64,000 nucleotides of DNA from Brucella sp. BE17. Lineage in GTDB: Bacteria > Pseudomonadota > Alphaproteobacteria > Rhizobiales > Rhizobiaceae. The notes beneath the pieces were generated by a model. The model had not been told where the DNA came from. It did not search any database and was given only the letters and a program-made list of their open reading frames with translations. This document shows, piece after piece, positions 51,849 through 64,000 of the stretch (position 1 is its first letter; each line of letters opens with the position of its first letter). Location: positions 1,674,001 to 1,738,000 of the forward strand of contig NZ_CP154467.1 in assembly GCF_039545455.1 (NCBI RefSeq), written 5' to 3'. The translations under genes and the position numbers were made by a program.

Positions 51849-51905
51849 TTAGTTCATCGTCTCGACTTGGCTCGGCGATGTGTACCCGAGCGTAGATTGC
51901 CTTGG
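51849..51905 (-). pseudogene. C-terminal fragment of an IS3-type transposase
   Basis: The last codons before the stop at 51849 read RQSTLGYTSPSQVETMN, matching the end of IS3-family OrfB proteins (RxxHSTLGYLSPxxYE). The rest of the transposase is missing; the reading frame upstream runs into recombinase-derived DNA on the other strand. It differs from the complete IS at 55889-57126. Confidence 0.5.
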
Positions 51906-51925
51906 TGTTAGGTTTAAAAGCGTTC

Positions 51926-52337
51926 GGTGTAGCGGCGAACGATAACGATCCGCCTGCCCTTCTGGATCCAAACATGGCCAAACTCTATCACGAGCAGATC
52001 GCAGCACTGCATGATCAGCTTGATAATGAGGAAACGCGGGTAAAGGCAACCAGAAAGGTTGCGCTCTCTCGTCTATCTGGTTCCGGATGCTGACAAACTG
52101 GTGATTGTGCTGCGAGGCGATCTTGCCGCGATCCTCACCTTTGCATCTGGTAAGAAGAAGCCCGAATTTCTCAGCGAGCGGGCAATCCTCGAAGACCTCA
52201 TGGGCCGCGCCGGTGCGGCTGAGGGACAAAAACGCAAAAAGCCCTTCGTTAAGAAGGGCTTGATGGATTTTCAGGGATCGTTGGTTGCGGGGGCACGCAA
52301 CTACCGATACCGACATTCACTACAAGTCACTGTCTGA
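51926..52337 (+). pseudogene. Frameshifted C-terminal remnant of a large serine recombinase
   Basis: Two overlapping plus-strand frames carry the end of a resolvase-type recombinase. The first has ALLDPNMAKLYHEQIAALHD QLDNEETRVKAT (in parts), the coiled-coil segment. The second, entered near 52058, has RSLVYLVPDADKLVIVLRGD followed by LAAIL. The N-terminal catalytic domain is absent, and a one-base frame change separates the halves. A short hairpin, AAGCCCTTC / GAAGGGCTT at 52239-52261, lies near its end. It suggests an old integration event at the edge of the island. Confidence 0.6.
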
Positions 52338-52371: not shown

Positions 52372-55300
52372 CTATTCCTCGTCGTCCAAATCCGTGAATG
52401 ACTGGAGCAACATTGCCGTAGTAACCTCGTCTCGTACAACATCCATTTCTGCGGATGCACCCGCCTTGAATGATCCACGCAATGAAACATATGCTCCAAA
52501 AGTCTCAACCCGCGAGGCGTTTGTTGTCATTTGTCTTAAGGCCGTATGATGACGATCATGATCCCCACCTCTTACCATCTGTGGCAACATGTCAACCACG
52601 GGAAGTGAAACCCCGCCCTCTTCAGCGTTCTTGTAAGCGGCGATCTGCCCAAGCACACCACACAGAAAGCCGAGATCAGGGGCGATGCGTATGGCGAAGC
52701 GGCGAGCCCGTTGTGCTGTTGAGGATTGGTTTGCTCGCTGTTTGACCTCTCCTTCGTGCTTCCGAATGAACGCGAGAAGCCAAGCCTCGATCTCGACCAG
52801 CGTGCGTCCTGCGCACCACATTGAAACCAACGTCTTGAGCGCTCCCAATATCCGCTTAGCGGTGGCCTTAGGTTTTGTTTTATTCGTGTAGGCGCGGCCG
52901 AAAACGGACTCAAGAGCTGTTTCCCTGACGAAGATCGTCAAATCCAAAGGATGTTCGGCCACTATATCCAGCAGCCAATTTATCCAGTCCTCGGTAGCCG
53001 TCTTTTCAACTGGCGCATGATCAAACGCCTCGACCAATCTTTCGATCAGCCTTGGCGGAACACCATTGCGGACAGCAATTTCCCGTTGCCAATCAAGAAC
53101 GGGCGGATCTTCCAGTTGTTCCTCGGCAGCCCTGAGCGCGGTTCGGCGACGTTCGAGCCATTTGTCCGCCCCCAAAGCATTAGCTTCCCTACGCCGGAAA
53201 AACCCCAGCGAACGGCGAACGATATCGTCGAAGCCGCTCTCTCCTGCTGTGGTGACAGCAGACAAACGCCGGATTATCGACTGCACTTTTGGATCAGGGT
53301 TAGCGGATACCTCGATCCGATCAAGAAGCAACTCTATCGGATCATAAACCTCCTCACAGGCATCCTGCTCGGAGAAAACGGTCTTCAGAATTCCTTCGGA
53401 CGGAAGAGAGAGGTTCCCTCTTTCCACACCGATGGGTTTTGCGGGAACAACGATTGCCAGACCGGTTGCAGCATACGCCGCGCGTCCAGCCCTCCCGAGC
53501 GCATTGAGTATCTCGTGAGGACGCAAGTCCGTGCGAGGATTGCCGCTTGGGTCATCAACCGCGCTCCTGTCGGTTCCTGCAAGAATCACGACATCGCACG
53601 GCAGATTCAACCCTTGCGCAATTGTGGATGTCGCGGCAACCACATCAAGGCCCAGATCCTCACTCTCAGAATCCCTGCGAACCCGAAAAACGCTTTCCGT
53701 CAACCGCCGCTCCAATGGCAGCAGATCACCATGATGCACCGCTGCTCTGCACCCCATGGGATCGAATGTGGCTTCGGCCGCTCCCACATCCCTGAGAACT
53801 GACTTGCGCATTTCCTCCTGCGTCTCATCCAGAGCGATGGTGGCCGGGGCCAATAGTCCATTGATCTGATCCGCAACGCTCCCGCATGCTTTAGTATCGT
53901 TGCAGAAGACGATCACGCGCTTTCCTACGGCCGCATAGTCGGCCGCGATCCGCGCAGCGACTTCGTTCCTGTTCGATGTCAACTTCCCCTTGGCATTTTT
54001 CACGAGCGGCGGCCGTTGATCCGTGAGCGCCTGCACGACCAGCTTCTCCGACCTTTTGGGGTGCCATCCAGAAATCAACGAAAAGAGTCCAAGAGGCTGT
54101 GCGGGGACCCGACTCCGCGCGGACTGGGTCTTCGCCTTCGATGCCGCTTGCACAGCCTCAAGCACGTCAGAGCGATCATAGATGACGCAAGAGCGAAGTT
54201 GCCGTGTTGGCTTCCAAGGATCGTCGAACGCTTCGACCTCCCTTCCCGTCACGGCCCGCAGCCAACGAGCGATTTCGGCGCCGTTGGCGACCATAGCAGA
54301 CAGCAGCAGCAGGTCTGCTTCCTTGCGATGGCGGAGAAACGTCAAGAACGCTAACATCGCATCAATGGCGCGTGCGCTGATTTTCGATGACGTAGCCGGA
54401 TCGTCGGCACTGATGAGATGGAACTCATCGAAGACGAGGAGGCCGACCTTGTCGAAAAGCTCAGGCGCGAAACCAAGGAGGGCAAGGCAACGCTCGGGTG
54501 TCATGACGGAGAATGGTGGTAGCTTGTCCCCAAGCTCTTCGAGCGCAACGTCTTCAACGACGCTGACCGCCTCTAGGCCTCCGATTTGTGCAGAGAGATC
54601 GGTCTCTACCTGATCTACGAGAGCGTGAGTAGGAGCCAGGTAGACGACGCTCTCTCCCGCGCATAGGGTTGCTGCGATTTTCAGGACGGATAGCGTGGTC
54701 TTCCCCGAACCGGTGGGCGATGTCATCACCATAGACCTGCCACGGTTCAGGTATCCCGTCCTGATAGCTTTCAGATGATTGATCCACAGAAACGGACGCG
54801 ATTGCGCCTGAGACAGGAGCCAGTCAGCCCATGCCTTGGCTTGCGCTCCAGATGGTGTTGGGAGTCGAACCAGCATCGCGGCCTGCATTCCATCAACAAG
54901 CCGACTCAACAGTGTGGCCAGATGATGCGGACCGGCAAACTGGTGATGCACGGTTCCTTCCATCGCAACGTTGATATCTACGGCTGTGGCCTCCGACAAG
55001 CGGATAACACGCTTGAGCCTTGAACGGATATCAGGGTCGGACACAGCGCTCCCGCGCGCCTCCTGTCCAAGTCCCTGAACCACGTAAGCACATTCCCTTA
55101 GAAGAAGGTCAGTGGCTACTTCTCGGCTATCTCCCGTTGCGATGGAGTCTTCGCCAAGGTCACGCTCTATCAGCGTCGTGAGATTGCCAGTTGCCAATTC
55201 CCGAAGGCTCAGGATCAGAGATCGTCGAACCGCCCGCCGTTCGCCCCTGGCCCGGAGTTGCCCCGCCACTTCCGCAGCGTCCGCCGCCCGATCAGCAACC

Positions 55301-55662
55301 AAGAACAGTAGCGTTGCCGAGATTGATGATGCAATTGCATCACTCGAAACAACGGTTGGACGAACCAACGCAGTTTCACGAACGCGGCTCAATATCTGAT
55401 GAGCACTAGCGGCGACGAAGGCCGCGGCACGCGTCTGCTCAGGTCGAAGATTGAGTGCGACATAGGCTTCAAAAGTCGAAGCAAGACGCCTCACCCGGTC
55501 GATCACTCCGCTTGCAGGCTCAGGTTCACCTTCACGTGACAGAAGGCGAACTGTCGCCAACTCAATGTGAGCCGCCGTCAACAACTCATCCAACGTTTCA
55601 GGATCGAGACCCGGTAGGTCCGGAGCCTCTCGTAGAAGAGCGCGAGAACTTGGATCAAACAC
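52372..55662 (-). CDS. hamB: HamB-like SF2 (Ski2-type) helicase of a Hachiman-like defence cassette
   Basis: 1096 residues. A helical N-terminal domain of about 300 residues precedes the helicase core: Walker A TSPTGSGKTT (314-323), motif Ia APTHALVDQ, motif II as DEFH (412-415) in place of DEAH, motif III LLLSAM, motif IV RVIVFCND, motif V VVAATSTIAQGLNLP and motif VI ALGRAGRA (721-728). Hachiman HamB helicases share this size and layout. The start is the GTG at 55660-55662, which overlaps the end of the HamA-like frame by 8 bp, so the two were translationally coupled. The frame is intact, though the partner gene is split by an IS. A stand-alone repair helicase (Lhr/Hel308-like) is the alternative. 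Confidence 0.75.
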   Translation of the reverse strand: MFDPSSRALLREAPDLPGLDPETLDELLTAAHIELATVRLLSREGEPEPASGVIDRVRRLASTFEAYVALNLRPEQTRAAAFVAASAHQILSRVRETALVRPTVVSSDAIASSISATLLFLVADRAADAAEVAGQLRARGERRAVRRSLILSLRELATGNLTTLIERDLGEDSIATGDSREVATDLLLRECAYVVQGLGQEARGSAVSDPDIRSRLKRVIRLSEATAVDINVAMEGTVHHQFAGPHHLATLLSRLVDGMQAAMLVRLPTPSGAQAKAWADWLLSQAQSRPFLWINHLKAIRTGYLNRGRSMVMTSPTGSGKTTLSVLKIAATLCAGESVVYLAPTHALVDQVETDLSAQIGGLEAVSVVEDVALEELGDKLPPFSVMTPERCLALLGFAPELFDKVGLLVFDEFHLISADDPATSSKISARAIDAMLAFLTFLRHRKEADLLLLSAMVANGAEIARWLRAVTGREVEAFDDPWKPTRQLRSCVIYDRSDVLEAVQAASKAKTQSARSRVPAQPLGLFSLISGWHPKRSEKLVVQALTDQRPPLVKNAKGKLTSNRNEVAARIAADYAAVGKRVIVFCNDTKACGSVADQINGLLAPATIALDETQEEMRKSVLRDVGAAEATFDPMGCRAAVHHGDLLPLERRLTESVFRVRRDSESEDLGLDVVAATSTIAQGLNLPCDVVILAGTDRSAVDDPSGNPRTDLRPHEILNALGRAGRAAYAATGLAIVVPAKPIGVERGNLSLPSEGILKTVFSEQDACEEVYDPIELLLDRIEVSANPDPKVQSIIRRLSAVTTAGESGFDDIVRRSLGFFRRREANALGADKWLERRRTALRAAEEQLEDPPVLDWQREIAVRNGVPPRLIERLVEAFDHAPVEKTATEDWINWLLDIVAEHPLDLTIFVRETALESVFGRAYTNKTKPKATAKRILGALKTLVSMWCAGRTLVEIEAWLLAFIRKHEGEVKQRANQSSTAQRARRFAIRIAPDLGFLCGVLGQIAAYKNAEEGGVSLPVVDMLPQMVRGGDHDRHHTALRQMTTNASRVETFGAYVSLRGSFKAGASAEMDVVRDEVTTAMLLQSFTDLDDEE

Positions 55663-55918
55663 CGGCGATCTCCTGGACTTTAGCCGCCACCTCGCCGGCG
55701 AGAAGAGCCAACCCCTTGCGCACGTCCTCGAAAGCCAGCACTCCGGCCGTGCGAGTTTCGAGCTCACCACCAGCGACCGCTTCAAACCCGGCTATGATAT
55801 GCAGAAAGCTTCCGGCCTTGCGCTGATCTTCGCCGGTCGCCACGGCAACTCTGAACTCGCGAGCACCTTCCCAGAACATCTCGTCGACTGAGCTGCTGCC
55901 GGTTCGGTGGACACGAAG

Positions 55919-56779
55919 TTAGGCTAGCTTAGCTTGCTCTTCGTATTCCACGGGGCTGAGATAGCCCAGTGTCGAGTGTCGGCGCCTCGGGTTGTAGAAG
56001 CGCTCGATATAGTCGAACACATCGGCCTTGGCGTCGTCCCTTGTGCGGTAGACCTTGCGGGCGGTGCGTTCGGTCTTGAGCGAGGAGAAGAAGCTCTCCA
56101 TCGCCGCATTGTCCCAGACATTGCCAGACCGGCTCATTGAGCAGGTGATGCCGTGATCGGCCATCAGGCGCTGGAACTGCTCGGATGTATATTGGCTGCC
56201 CTGGTCGGAGTGGTGCAGCAGCCTGTCGGGCTTGCCGCGACGCCAGATCGCCATGATCAGCGCATCGGTCACCAGTTGAGCGGCCATCGATGAACTCATT
56301 GACCAGCCCACCACCCGGCGGGAGTAGAGGTCGACGACCGCCGCCACATAGAGCCAGCCCTGAGCCGTCCAGATGTAGGTGAAGTCGGCGATCCACTTCT
56401 GGTTCGGCGCCGACGCCACGAACGCCCGGTCCAGGATGTTGGGCGAGACCGCGTGGCGCTGCCCGCCATCCTTGGGCAGGCCGCGCCGACGAGGGCGTGC
56501 CCGCAGGCCTTCCTGGCGCATCAGCCGCTCGATGCGATGCAGGCCGGCCTCGAGCCCCTCGGCCAGCACATCGTGCCAGACTCGCCGGGCGCCATAGGTG
56601 CGATCACTTCCGGCAAAGCTGGACCGGATCCCGGCGACAAGCACTTCGTCATATTGAGTCCGTCTGCTCGGCGAGCGGTTGAGCCAGGCATGGAAGCCCG
56701 AGCGAGACACACCGAGCGCCTCGCAGATCCACGAGACCGGCCAGATCCCTCGGTGCTTCGCAACAAAAGAGAACCTCAT
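55919..56779 (-). CDS. IS3-family transposase OrfB (DDE integrase)
   Basis: 286 residues. The catalytic triad is D132 (WIADFTYI), D192 (HHSDQGSQY) and E228 (NAAMESFF), giving DD(35)E. The N-terminal HTH_21-like part has YGARRVWHDVLAE and the C-terminus RRRHSTLGYLSPVEYEE. Its ATG (56777-56779) overlaps the orfA stop. It is expressed mainly as an OrfAB fusion through a -1 frameshift at a run of seven A residues (complement of 56809-56815). Confidence 0.93.
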   Translation of the reverse strand: MRFSFVAKHRGIWPVSWICEALGVSRSGFHAWLNRSPSRRTQYDEVLVAGIRSSFAGSDRTYGARRVWHDVLAEGLEAGLHRIERLMRQEGLRARPRRRGLPKDGGQRHAVSPNILDRAFVASAPNQKWIADFTYIWTAQGWLYVAAVVDLYSRRVVGWSMSSSMAAQLVTDALIMAIWRRGKPDRLLHHSDQGSQYTSEQFQRLMADHGITCSMSRSGNVWDNAAMESFFSSLKTERTARKVYRTRDDAKADVFDYIERFYNPRRRHSTLGYLSPVEYEEQAKLA

Positions 56780-57066
56780 ATCGAGTCCCTGGCGAAGTAG
56801 GCCGCGGCTTTTTTTAGGATATCGCGCTCCGCCTTGAGCTTGGCGACCTCACGGCGCAGCTTCTCGATCTCAAGCTGCTCGGGCTTCATCTGCCCATGAC
56901 CGGGGAAGGCCTGCTGCGGGTCGGAAGACTGCTCGCGCACCCACTTGCGCAACACGTTCACATGCAGATCCAGATCGCGGGCCGCCTGCGCCACCGCAAC
57001 GCCCCGTTCCCTGACCAGCTTAACAGCCTCGAGCTTGAACTCCCGGCTGAACTTGCGTCTCTCCAT
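56776..57066 (-). CDS. IS3-family OrfA (helix-turn-helix protein)
   Basis: 96 residues. HTH_Tnp_1 domain: FSREFKLEAVKLVRERGVAV AQAARDLDLHVNVLRKWVRE (in parts), then a leucine-zipper-like helix EIEKLRREVAKLKAERDILK KA. The A7G run at 56808-56815 (minus-strand AAAAAAAG) near the 3' end is the expected -1 slippery site for OrfAB. It binds the terminal repeats and regulates transposition. Confidence 0.93.
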   Translation of the reverse strand: MERRKFSREFKLEAVKLVRERGVAVAQAARDLDLHVNVLRKWVREQSSDPQQAFPGHGQMKPEQLEIEKLRREVAKLKAERDILKKAAAYFARDSI

Positions 57067-57790
57067 AAAAACTCTCCAGTTCCAAAAACACCTTAACTCG
57101 GTGTCCTCAAAACCGGCAGCAGCTCAGACCGCTGCCTCAGCGTCAATGTCAGGGACACTCTTCAGCAAGGTTACGAGGTCGGCGAGGATTTCATCATCGC
57201 GATCACCGCACAGAATAGTTCCGATCTCGGGCCATACGCTGGAGCTTATAAGGCTGCGCGGCGATTTCGAAGCTTTGTCCTCACAAAGCACAATGCGCTT
57301 GATCTCGCGCCCACCATCTTCCAGTTCGATTATAAAGCCGTCGAATCCCTTGTCTGCCTGTCGGACATGAGGCGATGTCATATAACCGTTCGAAAGAGCT
57401 AGCCGCGCCGCAACCCAGGAGATATGCTGAAATAACAGTCCGTCCCGGTGAATAACGGACGTCCTTATCCGCTTTCTTGCCGCCTCCTTCTGTTCGTCGG
57501 TTCCCGACCGGAAAAGCTCAACGTCTTCGGCACGCGGAGCCGTCAGCTTCCTCACGACATTCTGAGCGACCCTGCCTTTTGAAACGCGCCGTCGCGGTTC
57601 CAAAGCATTGATCACTCGCTGAGCGTTTTCCTCCTGTCGCAAATAGAGATAGGCGATAATTTCGATTAGTTTGGCACGATTTTTCTTGCTTATTGTCCAT
57701 TCCGAAAAATCACATTCTGTAGTTGGAGAATGAGTTATAGACAGTGGCATATGGTTCCCGCCCGAGACAGTTCGTCGCCAGCCCAAATGG

Positions 57791-59674
57791 CTATATATCG
57801 ACCGCGACCATCATTTGTGAAATTGTAGTAAGCCACCCCCTGATCTCATTCTGAGGATCTGTTACCGCAAGCCTATCGAGGGTCATACGAGACATCGCCG
57901 CATTATTAAGGCAGCGCTTCGCTGCACTCTCTTTCTTCCGCCGCTTCTCCTCATCAAGATTGTCCCAAGGATCAGCACCATTAGCCGCATGGACTGCCTG
58001 CGCCACGATTTTCGGTACATCGTCGAAATCACCGAAGGGTGCTGCAAATGCAATGTTTATCTGGTTCATAGCGTAGGCCTCATTAATGGCCTCATGGTGC
58101 AGGTAACTTTCCAACTCACGCTTCTGTGTTGCAACGGCCTGACATCCAGCGCGGGCGTTAACTGCATTCATATGATCGGCATACTTCGGCAGACCCGGCG
58201 GAGAATTGTCACGATCACAAATGTGAAACTCTGGCCTATTGAACGGGGCCAGACGCGATGCCCATAACGCTAGGTTACTACCCCCAAGTGGCACGAAGAT
58301 GAGTTCCCCATCTAACTCTAGTTTTTCGAGGTCGCACACTTCTTCGCCTGCGGCGATAAGTATTCGAGATACACCTTTGAGAAATGCAATGTCATGTGGA
58401 CCTTCCACGCCGATAAAGATTTTAACATTGTGGTCGGGAAGAACTCCCAGAGATTTTGCTATTTCAGCGGACGTTGCTTCATTGCCTTCGTTGACCGAAC
58501 GAATTCCGCCTTCTCCTCGCTGTATGAATCGAAGATCAGTCTCGTCCAGATAACGGGCCAACATAGGAGTATGCGTGGTAACTATGACTTGTTTACCTTC
58601 TCCATCCGAGAGTTCTCGAAGAGCGTTCAATAGTAGGCGTTGGTTTCTAGGATGCTGGCTGGTCTCAGGTTCCTCAATAGCATAGATTACCGATGCTGAG
58701 CCTTTCTCGACAGCAGCCTTCTCGGCTTTCGCCCGAAAGAAATTGAGGAGGACGAGGCGTTTTACGCCGCTGCCACGTTTATTTAGCGGAATGCCTTCGT
58801 CACCAGTAATACTCGTAGAAAATAACGTATCCCATTTCTTGGTCGTGATGACGGGATTGAGGGTTTCAGCAATGGACGCATCCATTTCCCGCAACTTCTC
58901 TACAGTTGCGGTAGCAATTTTATTCACCTCACCTTCAACGTAATCTCGAATTTCCTGCAACTTTGGCTCGACGGCCTTGATCGCTTCTCTAATTGCGGCC
59001 TTTAGAGGATCTTGAGCTTCCGCGTCTTGATCTGTGCTAGCTCGGTCTGACTTAAACAGTGCGAACGTTGGCAGGTATTGCTGCAACTCAGCCCAAACCT
59101 GTTTACTCCCTTCTGCATCAAGAGGCACCGCGACCGTTGCTAGTTTAAGGTCGTCACAGCTCTGCCAAATCGCCGCTCGCACGAGGGCGTTTGCTCTCTT
59201 GTCCACACCATCCAAATTCACGCCGAGATCGGCCGCCCGTTTGGCAAGGTCCGCTTTTTTGAGAGTAAGAAGGTCGTTATACCCTTCTACTGTCGGATGG
59301 TCAGCCAATGCTTCTATCGCAGTGATCTTCGGCGTCCCGAGGCTTCCATTGTAGGTCTTCTGAATCACAAGCGTTCCGTTCGCACTCAGAAGATACTCCC
59401 CAGAGAGCGTGGTAGGAAATTCAGCATCCACCACCATCTGCTCAGGAAGATGATCGAATTCGCATGTTATGCGCATCTGTTTGGGATCACCTGCCTTGCA
59501 GGCGTCATCCTTGTCAGGCGAAGCAGTTTCAAAGAAGATTGCCAGCGCGTCCATGAGAGTAGATTTACCTACGTCATTTCTACCAACAAGCGCGGTCAAA
59601 TTACCAAAGCGTACCGTGACAGGTGCTGAGTAACAACGAAAGTTCTCAACTGTAAGACCAATTAGACGCATCAT
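57791..59674 (-). CDS. OLD-family ATP-dependent endonuclease (ABC-type ATPase + TOPRIM)
   Basis: 627 residues. N-terminal ABC-type ATPase: Walker A GRNDVGKS (31-38) after TVENFRCYSAPVTVRFGNLT, signature-like NKRGSGVKRLVLL (298-310), Walker B with YAIEEPETSQHP (331-342) and H-loop VTTHTP. C-terminal TOPRIM: E424 (IGVEGPHDIAFLKG) and D487/D489 (HICDRDNSPP). OLD nucleases act in phage defence, for example Gabija GajA, but no UvrD-type GajB is present. It precedes the HamA-like frame on the same strand by 40 bp and so appears to be the first gene of one operon with hamA and hamB. Confidence 0.87.
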   Translation of the reverse strand: MMRLIGLTVENFRCYSAPVTVRFGNLTALVGRNDVGKSTLMDALAIFFETASPDKDDACKAGDPKQMRITCEFDHLPEQMVVDAEFPTTLSGEYLLSANGTLVIQKTYNGSLGTPKITAIEALADHPTVEGYNDLLTLKKADLAKRAADLGVNLDGVDKRANALVRAAIWQSCDDLKLATVAVPLDAEGSKQVWAELQQYLPTFALFKSDRASTDQDAEAQDPLKAAIREAIKAVEPKLQEIRDYVEGEVNKIATATVEKLREMDASIAETLNPVITTKKWDTLFSTSITGDEGIPLNKRGSGVKRLVLLNFFRAKAEKAAVEKGSASVIYAIEEPETSQHPRNQRLLLNALRELSDGEGKQVIVTTHTPMLARYLDETDLRFIQRGEGGIRSVNEGNEATSAEIAKSLGVLPDHNVKIFIGVEGPHDIAFLKGVSRILIAAGEEVCDLEKLELDGELIFVPLGGSNLALWASRLAPFNRPEFHICDRDNSPPGLPKYADHMNAVNARAGCQAVATQKRELESYLHHEAINEAYAMNQINIAFAAPFGDFDDVPKIVAQAVHAANGADPWDNLDEEKRRKKESAAKRCLNNAAMSRMTLDRLAVTDPQNEIRGWLTTISQMMVAVDI

Positions 59675-60059: not shown

Positions 60060-60311
60060 TCATAGCGCATCATTGCTTACTCTAGCTATCTTGGCGTGCT
60101 GTTGGACACGCCGCGCCTTGGCAAAGCCGCGATCCGTAGCGATGAACCGCTCCAGCATCGGCACGATCAGTCTGGCAGGCTCGATGGGCGCGCCGCCATC
60201 GGCCAAGAGAGCACCATAGTCTATCAGATCGCGGTGGAGCGCGCCCGGCAGCTCCACCGTCACTTTGACGGGTTTGTTCTCAACAAGCGGCCCAAGTTTC
60301 AGCTTTGTCAT
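60060..60311 (-). CDS. DUF2274-family protein of the trb operon
   Basis: 83 residues: MTKLKLGPLVENKPVKVTVE followed by LPGALHRDLIDYGALLA. The DUF2274 family regularly follows trbI in rhizobial and proteobacterial conjugative elements. Its basic N-terminus and the helix pair recall a ribbon-helix-helix-like DNA-binding protein, though the function is unknown. Start at 60309-60311, 2 bp after the trbI stop. Confidence 0.85.
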   Translation of the reverse strand: MTKLKLGPLVENKPVKVTVELPGALHRDLIDYGALLADGGAPIEPARLIVPMLERFIATDRGFAKARRVQQHAKIARVSNDAL

Positions 60312-60313
60312 GG

Positions 60314-61447
60314 TCAGTTCCTGTAAGGTTCGAGTACAAGGTCGCGGGTGACGATGACCCTGACGGGATAGCCCGGCCGGATGGTCAGGGTCGGCGCGAC
60401 CTGCAACTGGCGCTGGACGATCTGCTGTCCGGCCTGATTGATGGTGTCCTGCGCCCCGTCGCGGATGGCGCGGATCAGGCGGTCTTCGTCGTCGGTCGCC
60501 AGTTCCGTGCCGATGCCGAGCAGCGTGGACAGGCCCGCCGCTTTCATCAGATCCCACCAGTGGTAATCGACGCCACCCTCAAGCCCGGCATAGCCGGAAG
60601 CGTCCGCACCGGGCTGGCGCTCCAGCACGATGGATCGGCCGTTGGGCAGAATCAGGCGGTTCCAGACCAGGAGCACACGGCGCTGGCCGAACTGCACACT
60701 GGCGTCATACTGGCCGATTAACCGTGTTCCCTGAGGGATCAGGAGCAGGCTGCCGGTCGGGCTGTCATAGACATTTTCCGTGACCTGCGCGGTGATCTGG
60801 CCAGGCAGATCGGAACGGATGCCGGTAATCATCGCCGCCGGTATCACGGCCCCTGCCTGAAGGATATAGGGCGAGGCTGGCGCCATGATCCGGTCGGTGG
60901 CGACGGTCTGCCGATCCACCGGACCATTGAGAAATGCCGTGTGCCGGTCCTGCGTTGCGGGCTGACCGCCAAGGTCAAGGCCAGCGAGGCCCGGCACACT
61001 GGAGCCAGGTGTTGTCATTATCCTCTGCCCCGACTGGAAGAACACGGTGCTAAGACGTGCTGCTTCTTCCTCGGCAAGACGTCGCTCCTCGGCAGGATCA
61101 CGGGCTGGTGTCGCCATAGCGGACGGCGTAACGGGCTGCCCCCTGTTCTGGGCGTCGAGGATCGGGCCGCCGAGGTCTCCCGGCAAAGCTGGTCCCAGAA
61201 CCGGCCCAGTATAATCACGCGGCAGACCGGCCAGCCCGTCCGCTGTCGGGCGGTTCTCGGTCGAATAAAGTTCTTCGCCGCTGCCATTCATATCGCGGGT
61301 CTGGAGCGCATAGATCAGTGCGCCACCAATGCCGAGGAGCGCGACAGCGCCAACACCAGCCAGCATCTTGCGCGACAGGCGAGTGACACGCGGCGGCTCG
61401 GCACGCAGGCGCATGGGAGGCGCATTGGTGGTCGTCTCTTCGCTCAT
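60314..61447 (-). CDS. trbI: Conjugal transfer protein TrbI (VirB10-like)
   Basis: 377 residues. A cytoplasmic N-terminus, one membrane segment (MLAGVGAVALLGIGGALIYAL, residues 28-48), a Pro-rich periplasmic linker and the C-terminal TrbI/VirB10 barrel: SPYILQAGAVIPAAMITGIR, GSLLLIPQGTRLIGQYDASV and RLILPNGRSIVLERQPGADA. It spans both membranes in the type IV secretion channel. ATG 61445-61447 overlaps the trbG stop as ATGA. Confidence 0.95.
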   Translation of the reverse strand: MSEETTTNAPPMRLRAEPPRVTRLSRKMLAGVGAVALLGIGGALIYALQTRDMNGSGEELYSTENRPTADGLAGLPRDYTGPVLGPALPGDLGGPILDAQNRGQPVTPSAMATPARDPAEERRLAEEEAARLSTVFFQSGQRIMTTPGSSVPGLAGLDLGGQPATQDRHTAFLNGPVDRQTVATDRIMAPASPYILQAGAVIPAAMITGIRSDLPGQITAQVTENVYDSPTGSLLLIPQGTRLIGQYDASVQFGQRRVLLVWNRLILPNGRSIVLERQPGADASGYAGLEGGVDYHWWDLMKAAGLSTLLGIGTELATDDEDRLIRAIRDGAQDTINQAGQQIVQRQLQVAPTLTIRPGYPVRVIVTRDLVLEPYRN

Positions 61448-62463
61448 GACGGCTCCTCCCCGGTATTCGCGGGCTGAGCCGCATGCCTTTGTTCAACGCG
61501 GATAATCCTGACGGTCTGCTGACGATCGCCGCTGCCCAGGCGCAGCTCGGCCGCGCCGAACAGGCGATCTACGATCAAGACGTTCTGATGGATACGGCTG
61601 TTGACGATCTGCGGCTCGCCGTTCGATCCAAGCACGAAGATCGGCGGCATCTCGCCCTGCACAATCCCGGCCGGGAAAACGACATAGACGCGGCGTCCAT
61701 CGTCGAAGACGGAAACCGGCCGCCATGGCGGGCTATCGCCCTGCACCTGCAAGGAGTAGCGATAGTTGCGCGCGGCCTCGGCTGGAATGATCGGCGCGGC
61801 GGGAGCCGTCTGGCGTTGACCGGCAGGCAGCGCAGGATAGGACCAGGACACAGACGGCATATAGAGCGCCTCACGCGCCCGCAACTCGATCATGTAGGTG
61901 CGCCGGTCGGTCGTCACCACGAGATTGGTCGAGATATCGGGCCGGGTAGGCTTGACGAGAATGTGGACGCGGCGCGTTGTTCCCGATCCGCTCTCGGTGT
62001 CGCCGATGATCCAGCGGGCGGTGTCGCCAGCGGCAATCGGTCCCGCGCCGGTCAGGCTCTCGCCAGGCTCCAGCGCGATATTGGTGATCTGGCCCGGCGC
62101 GGCATAGACTTGATAGAGCGCGCCTTCCGACCACGGATAGATCTGGATAGCGTTATAGTAGCCTTCCCGGCGCGGCTCGACGCGGGCCGCGGCATTGGCA
62201 TTCTCGACGCGACCTGCCGGCGTTCCGGCAGCGGTGCCGCCGCGTGCCACTGTCCACGCGGGCGGCGTGTGCAATGCCCGGGGCCGGTCGTCGGTGACGG
62301 CGGCCTGCACCACGGGCAATGCGGGAACATCGGCATCATAGCTGAACTGTGGCGTGCGGTTGGTTGCGCAACCGGCCAGCATGGTCGCCGACAACAACAA
62401 AGCCGCCAAAGCGGGTTTACGGAAAACCGGCAAGCCGGAATTACGAACCATTGTGCGGGTCAT
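61444..62463 (-). CDS. trbG: Conjugal transfer lipoprotein TrbG (VirB9-like)
   Basis: 339 residues. Lipoprotein signal LAALLLSATMLAGC, then the VirB9 beta domains: YNAIQIYPWSEGALYQVYAA and YSLQVQGDSPPWRPVSVFDD, with RVYVVFPAGIVQGEMPPIFV. I chose ATG 62461-62463, which overlaps the trbF stop as ATGA; an ATG 21 bases upstream is possible. It forms the outer-membrane ring with TrbI. Confidence 0.94.
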   Translation of the reverse strand: MTRTMVRNSGLPVFRKPALAALLLSATMLAGCATNRTPQFSYDADVPALPVVQAAVTDDRPRALHTPPAWTVARGGTAAGTPAGRVENANAAARVEPRREGYYNAIQIYPWSEGALYQVYAAPGQITNIALEPGESLTGAGPIAAGDTARWIIGDTESGSGTTRRVHILVKPTRPDISTNLVVTTDRRTYMIELRAREALYMPSVSWSYPALPAGQRQTAPAAPIIPAEAARNYRYSLQVQGDSPPWRPVSVFDDGRRVYVVFPAGIVQGEMPPIFVLGSNGEPQIVNSRIHQNVLIVDRLFGAAELRLGSGDRQQTVRIIRVEQRHAAQPANTGEEPS

Positions 62464-63149
62464 TGGCTCATCTCCCGCGACCATGAAATTGCATTGACGT
62501 AGATACCGAGCGGATTGGCGCGCAGGCGCTCAGCATCGCGCGGCGTCTGGATTACGATGGTCAGGATCGCCGTCCAGCGTTCGGTCGCGGAGAGCTGGCC
62601 ATTTTCGTAATGGCGCTCGGTCCAGGCGACACGGAAGCTGTCATTCGAGGCTCGGATCACCGACGAAACCTCGACCGCAATCTGCTGCCGTCCGACCCTG
62701 GTGAACGGGTCATTGGCACGGGCATAATCATTGAGGGTCGCAGCACCCCGATCCGTAGTGAACTCATAGGCGCGCAGCCAGTTCTGGCGCACGATGATGG
62801 CGTCGGACGCGATCGAGCGCGTCTGCTCGATGAAGCGGCCGAGATGAAAAGCGATCTGGGGATCGGTCGGGCGATAGTCGGCGACGGCCGGCGCAACAGC
62901 CTGCGACTGCCCGAGATTGTCGACCTGCACCACCCAAGGCACTACGGTCCCACGCGCCGACTGCCAGACCAGCGCGGAGGCAAAGCCAGCGGACAGGATC
63001 AGTGAGCCGACGGCCATGATGCGCCAGTTCTTTGCCTGCACGCGAGCCGAGCCGATACGCTCGTCCCAAGCTTGGGCAGCTTTCTGATAGGGCGTCTCGG
63101 GTTCGGGCGATTTGCCGTAATGGGCCGATGGACGTTTGAAGATGTTCAT
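62460..63149 (-). CDS. trbF: Conjugal transfer protein TrbF (VirB8-like)
   Basis: 229 residues. MNIFKRPSAHYGKSPEPETP YQKAAQAWDERIGSARVQAK (in parts) is the standard start; a membrane segment IMAVGSLILSAGFASALVWQ follows, then the VirB8/TrbF NTF2-like domain with VPWVVQVDNLGQSQAVAPAV. A core inner-membrane piece of the secretion channel. ATG 63147-63149 overlaps the trbL stop. Confidence 0.94.
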   Translation of the reverse strand: MNIFKRPSAHYGKSPEPETPYQKAAQAWDERIGSARVQAKNWRIMAVGSLILSAGFASALVWQSARGTVVPWVVQVDNLGQSQAVAPAVADYRPTDPQIAFHLGRFIEQTRSIASDAIIVRQNWLRAYEFTTDRGAATLNDYARANDPFTRVGRQQIAVEVSSVIRASNDSFRVAWTERHYENGQLSATERWTAILTIVIQTPRDAERLRANPLGIYVNAISWSREMSQ

Positions 63150-64000
63150 GAGCGGTCACTTTCAGAAAGATTGATGGAGGAGCCGCCGCCATGGCTGTCG
63201 CCAGAGCGCACGGCATGGGCGGCCATCGACGTGCCCTGGCCGAGTGTCTGTTTGCGCTGCATCTGCTTTGCCCATGCCGGAGAACCGCCAGCCTGCGCGG
63301 CGGGTGACAGGGCCGCGCTCGCAGCCTCGCTCGCACCTCCGACTGTTCCAGCCGTCGAAGAGCCGCCGCTGACGCCGAAGCCGGCACGCGCTCCATCGGA
63401 AAAGCTGGACTTGACGCTTTCCGATGCCTTCGAGGCAGCACGTTTCAGGGGCGATGCGGCGGCGGAGCCTGCGGCACGGGCAACACCACCCAGACCCGAA
63501 GCAACACCGGCAGCGCCGGACTGGCCAAGCGAACCGACACTATAGGCGGCGCTCGCCGCACCTGCGGCGGCAGCACCACCCCGTACGGCAGCCGCTCCAC
63601 CAGAGAGCGCTGCTGCTCCTCCCTTCGCGGCCATGCCTGCGGCGGCACCCCCGGCAAGCATCATGCCGCCTGCGGCAAGGCCGGTTCCAACGGCAGCACC
63701 TGCGCCCAGCTGCGGGCCGCCGGAAACGAGACCGGACGCGATACCGGGACCGAATATGCCGAGGCCGAGAAGGGAAAGGGCTGCCAGCACGATCGCCATG
63801 GCATCGTCGATGGTCGGCGTCACGCCGCCGAAGCCTGCCGTGAACTGTGAAAACAGCGTCGAGCCGATACCGATGATGACGGCCAGCACCAGCACCTTGA
63901 TGCCGGAGGAAACGACATTGCCGAGCACGCGCTCGGCCATGAAGGCGGTCTTACCGAACAGGCCGAACGGGATGAGTACAAAGCCCGCCAGCGTGGTCAG
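63146..64000 (-). CDS. trbL: Conjugal transfer membrane protein TrbL (VirB6-like, partial)
   Basis: 284 C-terminal residues; the 5' part is off the window. LTTLAGFVLIPFGLFGKTAF MAERVLGNVVSSGIKVLVLA (in parts) and membrane segments are followed by a long Ala/Gly/Ser-rich tail (GGAAAVRGGAAAAGAASAA), typical of TrbL. It is a polytopic inner-membrane protein of the transfer channel. The order trbL-trbF-trbG-trbI matches rhizobial and Tn4371-like elements. Confidence 0.93.
   Translation of the reverse strand: MTTLAGFVLIPFGLFGKTAFMAERVLGNVVSSGIKVLVLAVIIGIGSTLFSQFTAGFGGVTPTIDDAMAIVLAALSLLGLGIFGPGIASGLVSGGPQLGAGAAVGTGLAAGGMMLAGGAAAGMAAKGGAAALSGGAAAVRGGAAAAGAASAAYSVGSLGQSGAAGVASGLGGVARAAGSAAASPLKRAASKASESVKSSFSDGARAGFGVSGGSSTAGTVGGASEAASAALSPAAQAGGSPAWAKQMQRKQTLGQGTSMAAHAVRSGDSHGGGSSINLSESDRS

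What the first reader, a model, noticed from the sequence alone, without database searches (positions are those of the whole stretch)
52372..59674. OLD nuclease + HamA-like nuclease + HamB-like helicase: a Hachiman-like defence cassette with an extra gene
Three minus-strand genes lie head to tail: an OLD-family ATPase/TOPRIM nuclease (57791-59674), a PD-(D/E)XK HamA-like gene (split by an IS) 40 bp later, and an 1096-residue SF2 helicase whose GTG overlaps the HamA-like stop. HamA-HamB is the known two-gene Hachiman system; OLD nucleases are known from Gabija and retron-type systems. The OLD gene as leading member of a Hachiman-type operon is not an arrangement I know. Motifs and spacing are seen; joint function is inference.
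Basis: partly seen in the sequence, partly recalled or inferred. Interest (0 to 1): 0.82.

Follow-up and report, generated by a model that had tools for sequence, protein, structure and literature searches.

The report
OLD nuclease beside unnamed nuclease-helicase pair
A mobile element carries two probably separate antiviral modules side by side, a lone OLD nuclease and a two-gene nuclease-helicase pair that resembles the Hachiman system but whose nuclease has no family name in the databases searched and is broken here by a jumping gene.

Summary
The middle family has an invariant D...E-D-K core (20 of 20 aligned relatives) but no HamA/DUF1837 hit, and whole-length profile comparison with HamA gives under 1% probability (controls 70-99%). 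The helicase core is HamB-like but far below true HamB scores. Nuclease and helicase lie together in 39 of 40 loci examined, not all independent; OLD precedes them in 5 of 40, one clade, in one trb-type conjugative-element lineage. OLD relatives lack the pair in 20 of 20 loci examined. A recombination breakpoint just inside the nuclease gene shows separate histories. None of 20 related cargo sites holds any of the three genes. Best reading: two stacked, probably independent defence modules, the second a Hachiman-like, unnamed two-gene system, disabled here. The OLD+Hachiman cassette is mostly not supported; the unnamed pair is the more interesting part.

The parts
57791..59674 (-). OLD-family ATPase/TOPRIM nuclease, 627 aa, intact
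   Evidence: AAA_15 4.5e-67; PADLOC AriA 7e-55, Old 1.2e-23, GajA 1.5e-21 over residues 214-593; PDB OLD 6p74 3.8e-9; Walker A at 31, EEPE at 334, DRD at 487 (motif names are mine)
57124..57750 (-). nuclease gene, first piece (208 aa), holds the conserved D137, E157, K159
55889..57126 (-). IS3-family insertion sequence that splits the nuclease gene
   Evidence: inverted repeats; NF033516; three identical copies; GTC on both sides read
55655..55888 (-). nuclease gene, last piece
   Evidence: match of relative P0001 residues 205-284; sequence
52372..55662 (-). SF2 (Ski2-type) helicase, 1,096 aa, HamB-like core
   Evidence: DEAD/Helicase_C; PADLOC PDC-M23B 2.1e-28, HamB 1.8e-26; PDB HamB 8vx9_B 3.4e-15; TGSGKT at 317, DEFH at 412, GRAGR at 723
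60060..60557 (-). ORF with DUF2274 domain (residues 83-150), last gene before the cargo
   Evidence: Pfam 3.3e-30
60314..61447 (-). TrbI conjugation protein
   Evidence: Pfam 2.3e-67
61444..63940 (-). further conjugation genes: CagX, VirB8 and TrbL domains
   Evidence: Pfam
52260..52282 (.). end of the stretch shared with OLD-bearing elements of other genomes; probable edge of the cargo
   Evidence: homology stops here in L011, L012, L013 and L031; L014 is too short to tell

Best explanation
Two defence modules lie next to each other in the variable cargo site downstream of trbI/DUF2274 of a trb-type conjugative element. Module 1 is a stand-alone OLD ATPase/TOPRIM nuclease. Module 2 is a two-gene nuclease-helicase pair that works like Hachiman: the Ski2-type helicase patrols DNA and, on aberrant DNA made during phage replication, releases a PD-(D/E)XK-type nuclease that destroys DNA and stops the infection. 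Shown here: gene content, conserved pairing, conserved residues, helicase homology, purifying selection, separate histories of the modules, variable cargo site. Inferred: defence role, nuclease activity, the gating mechanism, co-transcription. In this genome module 2 is probably inactive because an IS3-family insertion cuts off the last 76 residues of the nuclease; module 1 is intact.
For: Helicase next to the nuclease in 24 of 24 genome loci (in L019 and L022 only helicase residues 14-347 match) and 15 of 16 further loci. OLD in front in 5 of 24 and 0 of 16. OLD-bearing nucleases form one group on the tree, support 93/88. OLD relatives without the window's nuclease or helicase nearby in 20 of 20 loci (8 of 380 plasmid records, plus 12 viral contigs). 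Against L012, L013 and L031 the OLD gene is 82-92% identical at DNA level in 300-base steps and the pair 94-100%, the step lying between about 57,700 and 57,650. dN/dS of OLD 0.05-0.13 in four comparisons with finite dS. Cargo site: 0 of 20 related sites carry OLD, nuclease or helicase; others carry a type III methyltransferase, a type IIG enzyme or GmrSD.
Against: The OLD-pair arrangement is seen with two OLD haplotypes (dS about 0.7) in elements of several genera, so the linkage is older than one transfer. Against L011 there is no such step: OLD 97-100%, pair 89-99%. Gap 40 nt, same strand, so co-transcription is likely. No experiment shows defence for this pair. No structure could be predicted. 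One of the 20 OLD loci has a RecD-like helicase directly upstream (L007).
Confidence: 0.7

Rival explanations
1. A functional three-gene cassette: OLD is a third component of a Hachiman-type system, as HamM is in HamMAB.
For: 40-nt spacing and same strand; arrangement kept with two OLD haplotypes and in several genera; HamM, an upstream nuclease gene, is a published precedent (PMC12799240, passages).
Against: OLD not found in 35 of 40 pair loci; OLD without the pair in 20 of 20 loci; separate recombination histories; one group on the tree in one element lineage.
Confidence: 0.12
2. The pair is a true Hachiman system with a diverged HamA that sequence profiles miss. This does not exclude the two-module reading.
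For: Core-only comparison with all HamA sequences together puts D and ExK in register over 60 columns, score 19.6 against at most 15.4 in 40 permuted decoys; HamB-like core; same gene order; two relatives are labelled 'DUF1837 domain-containing' by a source (P0021, P0059).
Against: No HamA hit in Pfam or PADLOC. hhalign probability 0.7%, 0.05% and 0.98% over the whole length and 2.8%, 0.1% and 5.5% for the core, while HamA sets find each other at 70-99%; 1 of 40 decoys reached the core score against the canonical HamA set and 32 of 40 against the second set.
Confidence: 0.25
3. The pair is not defence but a DNA-repair or element-maintenance unit.
For: Ski2/Hel308-type helicases also act in repair; Hel308-type models are the best NCBIfam hits of the helicase.
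Against: Patchy distribution (7 of 297 genomes of the family; 4 of 398 of the phylum; own genome counted in both); on plasmids near Fic (L064), DUF4365 and TIR genes (L066); cargo site shared with restriction genes.
Confidence: 0.1

Closest known systems
Hachiman (HamA-HamB)
   Same: small nuclease-type gene followed by a Ski2-type helicase gene; D...ExK residues; helicase core homologous (hhalign 99.8%)
   Different: nuclease not recognised by HamA/DUF1837 models; C-E-D-K instead of G-E-x-K; helicase 90 bits against HamB models where the same genome's own HamB scores 628
PDC-M23 (PADLOC candidate) and long-helicase HamB subfamilies (PDLC00194, 00174, 00188, 00192)
   Same: nearest helicase models (PDC-M23B 97 bits, HamB PDLC00194 90 bits for the window; 118 and 117 bits to PDLC00194 for two relatives); helicases of similar length
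   Different: the two partner nucleases tested hit HamA models, one also PDC-M23A weakly; ours hit neither
OLD nucleases / GajA of Gabija
   Same: ABC-type ATPase plus TOPRIM in one chain
   Different: no UvrD-type GajB partner; the helicase here is SF2
HamMAB (PMC12799240, passages)
   Same: an extra nuclease gene upstream of a Hachiman-type pair
   Different: HamM is an MBL-fold nuclease cut by a protease fused to HamA; here an OLD protein, and the middle protein has no Pfam domain
AbpAB (PMC10732053, passages)
   Same: nuclease-type protein plus helicase, related in idea to Hachiman
   Different: AbpA is 538 aa with a Cap4-type nuclease domain and a HamA domain; the protein here is 284 aa with neither by Pfam

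Membership tests
Hachiman | HamA/DUF1837 (PF08878) protein | tested here: not met
   0 of 9 relatives in Pfam and in PADLOC; 0 of 9 distant relatives in Pfam, where the control HamA of the same genome hits at 4.3e-39; window piece 0 hits
Hachiman | HamA catalytic D-GExK | tested here: inconclusive
   D137, E157, K159 invariant in 20 of 20, but the residue before E is mostly C, in three rows F, not G; register with HamA suggestive only
Hachiman | HamB Ski2-like SF2 helicase | tested here: inconclusive
   core homologous, scores far below true members
Hachiman | HamB N-terminal helical domain that binds HamA | tested here: inconclusive
   no similarity found, but the HamB against long-HamB control was negative too, and only 2 HamB and 1 long-HamB sequences entered
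Hachiman | two adjacent genes, nuclease then helicase | tested here: met
   39 of 40 loci
Hachiman | phage defence by DNA degradation after DNA damage | not testable with these tools
   needs experiment
Gabija | GajA with UvrD-type GajB | tested here: not met
   neighbouring helicase hits DEAD/Helicase_C; no UvrD model among its 9 Pfam hits
OLD family nuclease | ABC ATPase plus TOPRIM | tested here: met
   the GajA-profile match runs to residue 593, through the TOPRIM part; TOPRIM labels are mine
PARIS (AriAB) | AriA with AriB | tested here: inconclusive
   AriA model 7e-55 (the same region hits the general AAA_15 model); no AriB among the best 25 of 142 hits shown

The most novel reading that the evidence does not exclude
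The nuclease-helicase pair is a separate, unnamed defence system in Pseudomonadota, with nuclease relatives in Bacillota too, in which a HamB-type sensor helicase gates a PD-(D/E)XK nuclease that is not HamA. That would make the helicase the conserved sensor and the nuclease an exchangeable or independently recruited effector.
Probability: 0.45. Interest if true: 0.62.

Novelty: new variant of a known kind. Interest (0 to 1): 0.45.

Why it matters
By the profile libraries used here this locus shows, at best, an OLD-type gene and a weak HamB. The nuclease family is large (285 and 202 relatives in two searches that may overlap), so a family model and a phage test would pay off, and would show whether helicase-gated nucleases arose once (HamA) or more than once. 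The OLD part warns against reading gene neighbourhood in a cargo hotspot as one system.

Tried and rejected
OLD as an obligate part: judged unlikely for the counts. Gabija: rejected, no UvrD-type helicase. HamA by profile: (PDB by sequence profile) gave no HamA; negative to suggestive. Terminal domains of the helicase: uninformative, controls weak or negative. Viral contigs and phage records held no relative of the nuclease. E. coli complete genomes held none at DNA level, although one search lists a protein with an E. coli label (P0044), so that negative is weak. Papers: the searches listed no title or abstract that I recognised as describing this pair; open-licence PMC papers only, listings plus passages of five papers. 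Co-transcription: the promoter/terminator scan was near chance level.

Limits: the 40 loci are not all independent (L012 and L013, L014 and L031, L019 and L022 have identical nucleases; L064 and L121 give identical nuclease scores). L018 and L019 have only 132 and 1,051 nt upstream, yet count as OLD-less. In one search the helicase match is partial in L065, L068, L121 and L128; the exception is L129, a nuclease fragment. L014 is a 3.5-kb contig of a cyanobacterial genome, probably contamination. The 20 OLD loci were searched with the window's own nuclease and helicase at E 1e-5, and some flanks are short, so distant partners could be missed. The 8 plasmid records came from the top-ranked rows. 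Of the trbI places I followed 20. PADLOC was run on 8 proteins from 3 of those 20 sites and Pfam on one gene of a fourth. Neighbours of the Bacillota relatives and of OLD hit L062 were not examined.
Full report
Observation. The window lies at G000:C1:1674001-1738000 of a 3.89-Mb genome in two contigs. The insertion is 55889-57126, an IS3-family element with terminal inverted repeats, flanked by GTC on both sides, in three identical copies, so the break is probably recent. The first nuclease piece keeps D137, E157 and K159; the last 76 residues are cut off.

What the proteins are. OLD protein: AAA_15 4.5e-67, GajA and Old models, solved OLD protein 6p74 3.8e-9. Helicase: DEAD and Helicase_C; best PADLOC models PDC-M23B (97 bits) and HamB (90 bits); HamB of the solved Hachiman complex 8vx9 3.4e-15, but yeast-type Slh1 scores better (4.3e-25), so the raw score says Ski2-type first and HamB-like second. 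Profile-profile comparison gives 99.8% with HamB (10 sequences) and 99.9% with long HamB-type helicases (3 sequences), confined to the core. Controls: the same genome's own HamB scores 628 bits, three other HamB-type proteins 1,065-1,660. Two distant relatives of our helicase score 118 and 117 bits to HamB model PDLC00194.

The nuclease. 285 relatives at E up to 1e-3 (120 listed) and 202 from a distant member (120 listed), the latter with Bacillus, Paenibacillus and Brevibacillus entries. None of the 240 listed rows carries a precomputed Pfam domain. Pfam, PADLOC and NCBIfam gave nothing above noise; two rows are called 'DUF1837 domain-containing' by a source. NCBIfam also missed the true HamA control, so that library is no test of HamA. 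In 20 aligned relatives R102-D-G, F107, S111-W, P127-H, G135, D137-G, E157-D-K159 and P164-R are invariant, which by general knowledge fits a PD-(D/E)XK core. Against HamA: whole-length hhalign 0.7%, 0.05% and 0.98%; controls 70-73% between HamA subfamilies and 97.6-99.0% within. Core only: 2.8% (1 of 40 decoys as high), 0.1% (32 of 40) and 5.5% (0 of 40); the last aligns D and ExK in register; control 94%. This suggests the same superfamily, not membership of HamA. The published HamA motif is D-GExK (PMC12799240, passages; PMC12278908, passages); here it is mostly D...C-E-D-K.

Neighbourhoods. Genome scan: 24 loci. Helicase next to the nuclease in 24 of 24; OLD in front in 5 of 24: L011 Brucella sp., L012 Paracoccus kondratievae, L013 Ochrobactrum sp., L014 (short contig), L031 Amaricoccus. 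On the nuclease tree (35 rows) the five OLD-bearing rows form one group, support 93/88; the tool warns that near-copies cluster by themselves. Only the nuclease and the helicase recur in all 23 loci clustered (L014 left out); the next clusters hold 5 loci or fewer. Upstream genes of OLD-less loci differ, one being an MvaI/BcnI enzyme (L025). OLD relatives: 380 plasmid records matched, 8 regions read, plus 12 viral contigs: none has a match to the window's nuclease or helicase in the flank fetched.

One element lineage, two histories. In L011, L012, L013 and L031 the shared DNA runs from the trb genes through OLD to the end of the helicase and stops at window 52260-52282. trb identities are confirmed by Pfam. 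Against L012, L013 and L031, identity in the OLD gene is 82-92% and rises to 94-100% for the pair, the step lying between about 57,700 and 57,650, some 50-100 bp inside the nuclease gene. Against L011 there is no such step (OLD 97-100%, pair 89-99%). OLD dS is 0.69-0.77 against L012, L013 and L031, helicase dS 0.07 against L012. So the pair has been exchanged between OLD haplotypes. OLD is under purifying selection (dN/dS 0.05-0.13, four comparisons with finite dS).

The cargo site. trbI relatives occur in 84 of 190 genomes of the family. I fetched the 8 kb downstream of 20 close ones: 0 of 20 hold OLD, the nuclease or the helicase. One holds a type III methyltransferase with an SNF2-type gene, one a type IIG enzyme, one a GmrSD gene; 16 of the 20 were not annotated. 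Cargo in conjugative elements of the Tn4371 kind is known (PMC11448139, passages), but I ran no test that assigns this element to that family.

Mechanism. [quoted passage not shown] Here the helicase would be the sensor and the E-D-K protein the effector. This is inference from gene order, conserved residues and helicase homology. OLD probably acts alone; how it is triggered is unknown.

Verdict. Observation confirmed; interpretation partly supported. The OLD+Hachiman cassette is most likely two stacked modules. The remaining interest is an unnamed nuclease-helicase pair. The searches (open-licence PMC papers only) listed nothing that I recognised as describing it.

Noticed in passing
G000:C2:20803 to about 23.6 kb (L039, L074), outside the window: The same genome carries a true HamA-HamB pair (HamA 3.8e-39, HamB 628 bits).
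   Followed up: partly
G000:C2:1248221-1249351, outside the window: A second trbI, 96% identical, points to a second related conjugative element without OLD or the pair in the next 8 kb.
   Followed up: partly
window 51849-52316: 155-aa ORF that by eye looks like a transposase remnant just beyond the helicase; no Pfam hit.
   Followed up: no
L120 (about 102-109 kb in window-extended coordinates): ORFs of 1013, 431, 409 and 546 aa that by eye resemble a type I restriction-modification set with an extra ATPase; no family search was run.
   Followed up: no
L019 and L022: Identical nuclease proteins in Sphingomonas and Novosphingobium, each with only a helicase match to residues 14-347: probably a shared broken helicase.
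   Followed up: no
L161 343-5800: Three-gene set (365, 600, 868 aa; the third with weak SNF2-type hits) at the same cargo site; PADLOC gave no hit for the first two.
   Followed up: no
L042/L085 and L040/L082: Long-helicase HamB-type loci that also match PDC-M23B and whose nucleases are diverged HamA (L042 and the similar L041 tested); they may link canonical Hachiman with PDC-M23.
   Followed up: partly
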